A DNA stretch of 64,000 bases, from the NCBI GenBank assembly GCA_030841085.1, contig JAVEDP010000022.1, forward strand, positions 310,001 to 374,000, in the 5' to 3' direction. The translations under genes and the position numbers were made by a program. Positions within the stretch are counted from its first letter, which is position 1. Every line of letters begins with the position of its first letter. This document shows positions 37,350 to 37,515 of the stretch, piece by piece. Origin of the DNA: Pyrinomonadaceae bacterium. Lineage in GTDB: Bacteria; Acidobacteriota; Blastocatellia; Pyrinomonadales; Pyrinomonadaceae. The notes below the pieces were generated by a model, which saw nothing but the letters and a program-made list of their open reading frames with translations, had not been told where the DNA came from and ran no database searches.

Positions 37350-37515
37350 TCCCGGGCTTGCGGAAAATGCGGGCTCTAAGGCCCAAGCAACTGTTCGGGT
37401 TTATGGAAAACGAGGTGCAACGATCAAAGCTTCACGTCGGGCTCTAAGCAACCTTGCGGACAACGATCTGCTGCACCTCGGGCCAATCTCTTCTACAAGC
37501 AAGCGATTGGCACGG
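37350..37515 (-). ncRNA. Candidate bridge RNA of the IS110 element
   Basis: Read on the minus strand upstream of the transposase. A 5' hairpin: GCCAATC (37511-37505) with GATTGGC (37488-37482). A 9-bp stem CGAGGTGCA (37480-37472) with TGCACCTCG (37419-37411), closing a 52-nt loop with an inner GCTT/AAGC stem. A second hairpin: GCTTG (37388-37384) with CAAGC (37360-37356), topped by GGGC/GCCC (37384-37371). The 11-mer CTTAGAGCCCG occurs once in each of the two loops (37448-37438 and 37380-37370). Layout and length (about 165 nt) fit a bridge RNA with target- and donor-binding loops. Folded by eye; boundaries approximate. Confidence 0.5.

What the first reader, a model, noticed from the sequence alone, without database searches (positions are those of the whole stretch)
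37350..37515. Candidate bridge RNA in the non-coding end of an IS110 element
Seen: upstream of the transposase, on its strand, about 165 nt fold by eye into a 7-bp 5' hairpin, a perfect 9-bp stem (37472-37480 with 37411-37419) closing a 52-nt loop, and a second smaller hairpin. The same 11-mer CTTAGAGCCCG stands in both loops. Loop 2 contains AAGCAACTGTTCG on the plus strand (37385-37397), which is matched at the element's distal end by AAGCAACTGTGTTCG (36353-36367), identical except for a 2-nt TG. The two sides of loop 1 match, on opposite strands, the overlapping distal sequence CGTGAAGCAAC (36349-36359). Known: IS110 recombinases use such bridge RNAs with target- and donor-binding loops. 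Short matches may arise by chance.
Basis: partly seen in the sequence, partly recalled or inferred. Interest (0 to 1): 0.85.

Follow-up and report, generated by a model that had tools for sequence, protein, structure and literature searches.

The report
IS110 jumping gene's guide RNA
A bacterial jumping gene carries next to its enzyme gene a short guide RNA whose two loops match the element's own ends and the repeat hairpin it has landed in; this is a well-formed new example of a mechanism described in 2024, with some instructive side findings.

Summary
The finding holds. The IS110 recombinase (36371-37333, minus strand) is preceded by a bridge RNA at about 37540-37343. A covariance model from 51 relatives, window excluded, finds it at 96.3 bits (E 1e-22; next place 4.7). 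In relatives 17 of 23 stem pairs show double changes, and the target loop covaries with the flanks: left guide 239 of 300 cells (111 expected), right guide 227 of 250 (84.5 expected), 0 of 10,000 permutations each; the window scores 5/5 and 5/5. It split a hairpin of a REPIN-like repeat (Rfam Acido-Lenti-1; 101 matches found in the genome), and intact repeats align across the empty site. A related element in a genome of the same genus (70% identical protein) has other target guides, fitting a second repeat family. Side finding: Rfam sX15 lies antisense to IS110-type bridge RNAs at two places. New member of a known kind; transcription and activity untested.

The parts
36356..37556 (-). IS110-group element, 1201 bp counting one CT core copy; LE at 37556, RE at 36356
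   Evidence: Ends set by family-wide LE CTTGTAT and RE TTGAC..ACAGTTGCT motifs and by intact repeats aligning across the joined flanks
36371..37333 (-). IS110 recombinase, 320 aa, D13 E57 D99 D102 and S238
   Evidence: Pfam PF01548 9.8e-23 and PF02371 9.7e-18; PDB relatives ISCro4 9t56 3.2e-33, IS621 8wt6 5.7e-32; residues located
37343..37540 (-). Bridge RNA; 37343-37486 matched by model R1; 5' end near 37540 predicted from the joined promoter
   Evidence: cmsearch 96.3 bits, E 1e-22; 5' end is inference
37483..37510 (-). 5' hairpin of the RNA
   Evidence: fold; not part of model R1, so not tested comparatively
37411..37480 (-). Target-binding loop with its 9-bp closing stem
   Evidence: stem columns covary in 51 relatives
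37457..37461 (-). Left target guide GTCCG (a C that fits the core C follows at 37456)
   Evidence: matches LT 5/5 in the family register
37430..37436 (-). Right target guide CGTGA plus AG that pairs the CT core
   Evidence: complementary to RT 5/5 in the family register
37385..37396 (-). Left donor guide GAACAGTTGCTT
   Evidence: 10-nt exact match ACAGTTGCTT to the RE end; conserved in relatives
37357..37370 (-). Right donor guide region GCAT..GCAAG, proposed discontiguous pairing with CTTG.ATG at LE
   Evidence: sequence; pairing is inference by eye; a discontiguous pattern is described for IS621 (PMC11208160, section 7)
37557..37561 (-). Left target flank GTCCG (LT -5 to -1)
36349..36353 (-). 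Right target flank TCACG (RT +1 to +5)
37555..37556 (-). CT core at LE
36354..36355 (-). CT core at RE
36369..36374 (-). TTGACA, -35 box brought to the LE only by joining RE to LE
37547..37552 (-). TATGTT, -10 box, 17 nt from the -35 box across the joined core
36274..36322 (-). Acido-Lenti-1 (RF01687) match, left arm of the split REPIN-like repeat
   Evidence: 39.4 bits, above gathering 37
37633..37681 (+). Acido-Lenti-1 match, right arm of the split repeat
   Evidence: 28.4 bits, E 5.3e-4, below gathering 37

Best explanation
This is a complete IS110-group insertion sequence with its bridge RNA. Excision joins RE to LE through the CT core, which builds a sigma-70-type promoter that transcribes the bridge RNA from LE. 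The RNA binds the DEDD/serine recombinase; its second loop pairs with the element's joined ends (donor) and its first loop with the target (left guide GTCCGC, right guide CGTGA-AG), here the hairpin GTCCG-CT-TCACGGAC of a REPIN-like repeat, and the recombinase exchanges strands at the CT core. Shown here: homology, structure, guide-flank covariation, ends, joined promoter sequence, empty sites. Inferred from IS621: excision, transcription, binding, catalysis, and the right donor pairing.
For: Recombinase domains and IS621/ISCro4 kinship. Model R1 from 51 relatives without the window: 96.3 bits here, next place in the window 4.7 bits; the only match reported in the 4.69-Mb genome (150 of 756 candidates scored). 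Stem support: 17 of 23 pairs with both-side changes, 96.7% of cells paired, 0 of 500 shuffles as high, all slid controls lower. Register-free flank test: LT in 60 loci, own mean 6.22 nt against 4.76 crossed; RT in 50 loci 6.62 against 4.80; 0 of 10,000 permutations each. Column test: right-guide columns 86-96% against 30-36% expected; left-guide columns 68-87% against 25-66%. Fixed register: 239/300 and 227/250; keeping one locus per guide 155/200 (n=40) and 137/155 (n=31), 0 of 10,000 each. Window 5/5 and 5/5. Joined promoter with 17-nt spacing in 41 of 50 loci. The joined flanks align through the junction with 7 of 29 repeat loci of the same genome, best 79% over 225 columns. The right guide of L002 (CCGCG-AG) matches CT-CGCGG after the RE end on three other contigs of G089.
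Against: Nothing found contradicts it. Weak points: no RNA or activity data; only one copy in the genome, so no second insertion of this very element; the left guide does not pair the second core base (CA instead of CT), though other members share this; LDG and LD differ by a 2-nt insertion; single-sequence fold only z -2.17, and because the target is palindromic the two guides pair with each other in that fold. In the family 16 of 60 left guides match 3 or fewer of 5 flank bases and 2 of 50 right guides do. The column register was chosen on the same data, and shifting the left register by -1 also stays above all 2,000 permutations (231 of 540; 319 at shift 0); needs no register. The RE finder required a TTGACA-like box (up to 2 mismatches) and the LE finder CTTGTAT, so the presence of the two promoter boxes in the 50 loci is by construction; only their spacing is informative.
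Confidence: 0.95

Rival explanations
1. The region is only the structured 5' leader of the transposase mRNA, a translational control element as proposed for ISPpu9, and the flank matches are by-products.
For: The same region lies just upstream of the start codon, and ISPpu9 has a long structured 5'-UTR and an antisense sRNA there (PMC8450116, abstract and passages).
Against: A leader gives no reason for the loop to covary with flanking DNA outside the element (0 of 10,000 permutations) or for the spacing of the split promoter. Both roles could coexist.
Confidence: 0.03
2. The element is a relic whose bridge RNA no longer works. (Not exclusive of the best explanation: it concerns present activity, not what the RNA is.)
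For: Single copy in the genome; mismatch in the left-guide core base; LDG/LD 2-nt difference.
Against: Intact 320-aa frame with all five catalytic positions, guides at 10 of 10 covarying positions, intact split promoter, and 23 hits of the target pattern in the genome.
Confidence: 0.25
3. The loop matches are chance.
For: Single matches of 6 and 7 nt are not rare against a 92-nt loop (3188 and 852 of 20,000).
Against: Register and family covariation; 0 of 200,000 random site pairs match both guides.
Confidence: 0.01

Closest known systems
IS621 bridge RNA and recombinase (IS110 group; PMC11208160, PMC11208158)
   Same: Upstream bridge RNA with 5' hairpin, target loop then donor loop, CT core, split sigma-70-type promoter, DEDD plus serine residues, REP hairpin as target
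   Different: Recombinase only distantly related (phmmer E 5.7e-32); different guides; target is an Acido-Lenti-1-type repeat, not the enterobacterial REP
ISCro4 (PDB 9t56)
   Same: IS110-family recombinase, the best-scoring solved structure (3.2e-33)
   Different: Only sequence kinship was seen; its bridge RNA was not compared
ISPpu9 of Pseudomonas putida (PMC8450116)
   Same: IS110/IS492-family element at one position in REP sequences, with a structured RNA region upstream of the transposase
   Different: Described with an antisense RNA (Asr9) and a downstream sense RNA (Ssr9); no antisense RNA was tested here, and its sequence was not compared
Rfam sX15 (RF02234)
   Same: At two places the strand opposite to sX15 is matched by model R1 (50.5 and 49.8 bits) and stands before an IS110-type start
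   Different: Annotated as a Xanthomonadaceae sRNA on the other strand; in the window it scores far below its threshold (24.1 against 55 bits, E 0.23)

Membership tests
IS110 family | DEDD RuvC-like domain PF01548 and serine-bearing PF02371 | tested here: met
   residues
IS110 family | Long non-coding end, on the 5' side (LE) for the IS110 group | tested here: met
   LE 37334-37554 = 221 nt, RE 36356-36370 = 15 nt (from coordinates)
IS110 bridge RNA | Two structured loops in LE, recognised by a covariance model | tested here: met
   model made here, not the published one
IS110 bridge RNA | Target loop guides covary with LT and RT | tested here: met
IS110 bridge RNA | Donor loop pairs with LD and RD | tested here: inconclusive
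   LD: 10-nt match in the window, but the donor is nearly invariant in the family so covariation was not shown; RD by eye only
IS110 bridge RNA | Sigma-70-like promoter formed across the joined RE-LE core | tested here: met
   TTGACA-N17-TATGTT in the window; 17-nt spacing in 41 of 50 loci (box presence in relatives is by construction)
IS110 bridge RNA | RNA is transcribed and bound by the recombinase | not testable with these tools
   needs RNA sequencing and binding assays
IS1111 group | Bridge RNA in the RE | tested here: not met
   model R1 hits LE; RE is 15 nt
IS1111 group | Subterminal inverted repeats of 7-17 bp | not tested
   no search made
REP/REPIN target | High-copy palindromic repeat, in inverted pairs, with Y1 tyrosine transposases in the genome | tested here: met
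   101 RF01687 matches, 68 of them in 34 minus/plus pairs 83-175 nt apart, 23 hits of the target pattern against 0 reversed, 15 Y1_Tnp matches
Rfam families | Gathering-score match for the RNA itself | tested here: not met
   none over the RNA in the window, nor in 40 related loci scanned (L113 is the same sequence as L002)

The most novel reading that the evidence does not exclude
In this bacterial family IS110 elements live off REP/RAYT repeat arrays: close relatives keep nearly one donor loop but have re-coded the target loop so that each reads a different high-copy REP hairpin family of its host (GTCCG/CGTGA against Acido-Lenti-1 repeats in the window, ACCAC/CCGCG against a second repeat in G089, a genome of the same genus). 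This would be natural retargeting between safe-haven repeats, in step with which REP family is abundant.
Probability: 0.5. Interest if true: 0.5.

Novelty: new member of a known kind. Interest (0 to 1): 0.38.

Why it matters
It adds a fully bounded bridge-RNA system with both target guides, core, promoter and empty sites readable, a candidate reprogrammable recombinase. The pair of related elements that read two different repeat families offers a natural experiment in guide retargeting. It also suggests two re-readings of RNA annotation: Acido-Lenti-1 as a REP sequence, and sX15 as the antisense strand of a bridge RNA.

Tried and rejected
Rfam has no family at gathering score over the RNA. An LE near 37530-37540 was considered first and dropped once relatives showed CTTGTAT as the LE start. 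L114 (G109) has a good RNA match (93.6 bits) but its recombinase frame holds two stops and I saw no clear RE in the printed stretch, so it was not used. G044 gave no R1 match, so its guides could not be tested; of its two RE ends only L145 has a listed Acido-Lenti-1 match nearby, L144 has none although the same ten bases TCGCGGGTT(A/C) follow its RE up to the ninth base. The OK233 copies (L036-L042) gave no RE by my motif, so only L036 entered, without an RT; its left guide matches 1 of 5 in the fixed register, although a 7-nt match exists one step away.

Selections: of 80 relatives kept (of 241 that encode a relative), 75 were examined after leaving out five further OK233 copies; LE was found in 59 of 75 plus the window (the 16 misses include loci cut by contig ends and loci without an exact CTTGTAT or a donor-loop anchor); RT in 50 of these 60. 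For A1 I chose 52 of the 75 and gave 51 (L076 left out). In one search the automatic alignment dropped one base of the window, so the window's register was set by hand from its GCAAGG and GTGAAGC anchors. The permutation tests treat loci as independent; thins them by guide only. The random test of the donor match (20 of 20,000) did not exclude draws from the loop and RE themselves. One search scored 150 of 1133 candidates, so 101 is a lower bound. RF02234 was found in 0 of 2 and 1 of 369 genomes, so the sX15 reading rests on two places plus nine plasmid records of equal identity.

Full report
What is there. On the minus strand a 320-aa frame (36371-37333) has both IS110 domains (PF01548 9.8e-23, PF02371 9.7e-18) and the D13-E57-D99-D102 and S238 positions, which I take from motif context to correspond to D11, E60, D102, D105 and S241 of IS621 (residues from PMC11208158, passages). 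Its PDB relatives at E 0.001 are two sequences, ISCro4 and IS621. A PF02371 search finds it alone in the 4.69-Mb genome, as does the protein search.

Ends of the element. Relatives from genome contigs (80 loci kept, 50-70% identity) share an LE that begins CTTGTAT and an RE that ends TTGAC...ACAGTTGCT. These place the window's ends at CT cores 37556-37555 and 36355-36354, a 1201-bp element with a 15-nt RE and a 221-nt LE. Joining RE to LE yields TTGACA-N17-TATGTT. Among 50 loci the spacing from the -35 box to TAT is 17 nt in 41; the boxes themselves were part of how I found the ends, so their presence is by construction. This is the kind of circle-junction promoter described for IS110 (PMC11208160, passages).

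The RNA. From 51 relatives (window left out) I aligned the region, folded it and built model R1. R1 finds window 37343-37486 on the minus strand with 96.3 bits and E 1e-22; the next place in the window has 4.7 bits. It is the only match reported in the genome (150 of 756 candidates scored). The structure is well supported: 17 of 23 pairs have changes on both sides, 96.7% of cells are standard pairs, no shuffle of 500 reaches any of the five measures, and sliding the partners by 1-3 columns drops pairing to 34-46%. The target-loop stem carries most of this (9 of 11 pairs with double changes); the donor-loop stems vary less. The window's own minimum-energy fold shows the 5' hairpin, the long stem and the outer and inner donor-loop stems. 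In it the two target guides pair with each other, as expected for guides to a palindromic target.

Guides against flanks. Without any assumed register, the longest match between the target loop and its own left flank averages 6.22 nt against 4.76 for other loci's flanks (60 loci), and for the right flank 6.62 against 4.80 (50 loci); no permutation of 10,000 reaches either. By column, the five bases before the near-invariant AG are 86-96% complementary to RT +5..+1 (30-36% expected), and five bases of the left side are 68-87% identical to LT -5..-1 (25-66% expected). Fixed to those columns, matches are 239 of 300 and 227 of 250, against 111 and 84.5 expected; keeping one locus per guide, 155 of 200 and 137 of 155; 0 of 10,000 permutations in each. 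The columns were chosen on these data, and a left register shifted by -1 also exceeds all 2,000 permutations, though less (231 against 319 of 540); the register-free test has no such choice. The window has GTCCG/GTCCG and CGTGA/CGTGA, 5 of 5 twice (register set by hand, see Tried and rejected). Members that fit badly are: 16 of 60 left guides at 3 or fewer of 5, and 2 of 50 right guides.

Where it landed. The flanks carry two Acido-Lenti-1 matches in opposite orientation, 36274-36322 (39.4 bits) and 37633-37681 (28.4 bits, below the gathering score). The genome has at least 101 matches at E 1e-3 or better, 51 over the gathering score (150 of 1133 candidates scored); 68 of the 101 form 34 minus/plus pairs with starts 83-175 nt apart. 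With the element removed the window's two lie 158 nt apart. The joined flanks align through the junction with 7 of the 29 other repeat loci held (two of the seven, L087 and L098, are the ends of one repeat): L108 79% over 225 columns, L102 77%, L103 76%, L094 74%, L111 73%, L087 and L098 67%; four more match in part and 18 not at all at E 1e-3, these being other repeat types. The split hairpin is GTCCGTGAAG-CGGACGG on the plus strand; the pattern GTCCGTGAARCNGACG occurs 23 times in the genome and 0 times reversed. The genome has 15 Y1 transposase matches, two of them lying between a minus and a plus repeat match (C22:262820-263149, C11:8286-8543). I therefore read Acido-Lenti-1 here as a REP sequence of a REP/RAYT system (inference). 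A survey of GTAG-tagged REPs names acidobacterial tyrosine transposases with repeated termini (PMC3733652, passages). The founding paper lists Acido-Lenti-1 for Acidobacteria and Lentisphaerae with 'y' under 'RNA?' (PMC2864571, one passage). A library search for the name gave three papers; I saw only that passage. That the window's own genome is acidobacterial is likely from this and from its same-genus relative L002/G089, titled a Blastocatellia MAG; no call named the genome itself.

A prediction that held. L002 and L113 are one sequence, from G089, a genome of the same genus (70% identical protein), cut before its RE. Its target loop reads ACCAC on the left, which matches its left flank 5 of 5, and CCGCG-AG on the right (one search lists it without a flank), which predicts CT-CGCGG after the RE. 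Three other contig ends of G089 carry its RE, all three followed by CT-CGCGGTAGCGGGTGGGT. The uncut form GTACCACCTCGCGGTAGCGGG, allowing 3 mismatches, occurs 39 times in G089 (16 exact) and 7 times in the window's genome (none exact), against 1 and 1 for the reversed control. So two close relatives keep nearly the same donor loop but read two different repeat families. In G044, of the same family, one of two related RE ends lies 31 nt from an Acido-Lenti-1 match, the same distance as in the window; the other has no listed match.

Side finding on sX15. The weak antisense hit led to Rfam sX15. In a Xanthomonas hortorum plasmid (L142) RF02234 scores 150.9 bits on one strand and R1 50.5 bits, E 3e-13, on the other, followed by a start codon and MNGIGIDVCKAKLFVG, an IS110-type N-terminus read by eye (the annotated 152-aa product has no Pfam match, so the gene looks broken). 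Nine Xanthomonas plasmid records carry the sequence at the same 75.9% identity to the consensus. sX15 may be a real antisense transcript, as Asr9 is for ISPpu9 (PMC8450116, abstract and passages), or a strand error. The library search for sX15 with Xanthomonas gave two papers; I saw one passage of one and the listing of the other, neither of which ties it to IS110; most subscription papers are not held, so this is no proof of absence.

Verdict. The finding is real and the interpretation right. It belongs to a described kind: Durrant et al. predicted a bridge RNA in 85.7% of IS110-group elements and name REP elements as targets (PMC11208160, sections 6, 7, 12 and passages). What is new is this member, its repeat target, and the re-coded target loop of its relative. 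RNA production and activity remain untested.

Noticed in passing
window 37334-37495 (+); L142 1499-1657; L205 about 1501-1662: Rfam sX15 (RF02234) appears to be the antisense strand of IS110-family bridge RNAs; at two places R1 matches the opposite strand in front of an IS110-type gene start.
   Followed up: partly
window 36274-36322 (-) and 37633-37681 (+); 101 places in the genome: Acido-Lenti-1 (RF01687) behaves as a REP/REPIN repeat: at least 101 matches, 34 inverted pairs, two Y1 transposase matches between arms.
   Followed up: partly
L174, L175, L176 (G089 contig ends): The related element sits in a second repeat family (GTACCACCTCGCGGTAGCGGG, 39 matches in G089 at up to 3 mismatches).
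   Followed up: yes
L145 (G044:C56, about 44689-44721): A related element's RE lies 31 nt from an Acido-Lenti-1 match, the same distance as in the window; no bridge RNA was found in that genome.
   Followed up: partly
window 37448-37438 and 37380-37370 (-): The 11-mer CTTAGAGCCCG stands in both loops; relatives have small inner hairpins at both places (helices 2 and 4), so the two loops may share an origin by duplication.
   Followed up: no
L022, L024, L026, L044, L058, L075: Several copies share one left guide (AAGAT) with flanks AAGAT, AAGAC or ACGAT, hinting at repeated use of one target family.
   Followed up: no
window 37457-37461 with 37432-37436 (-): The two target guides are nearly complementary to each other because the target is a palindrome; they pair in the minimum-energy fold, which may compete with target reading.
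   Followed up: no
window 37759-38763 (+): A YkuD L,D-transpeptidase gene (PF03734, 9.9e-13) stands beside the split repeat and is not interrupted.
   Followed up: no
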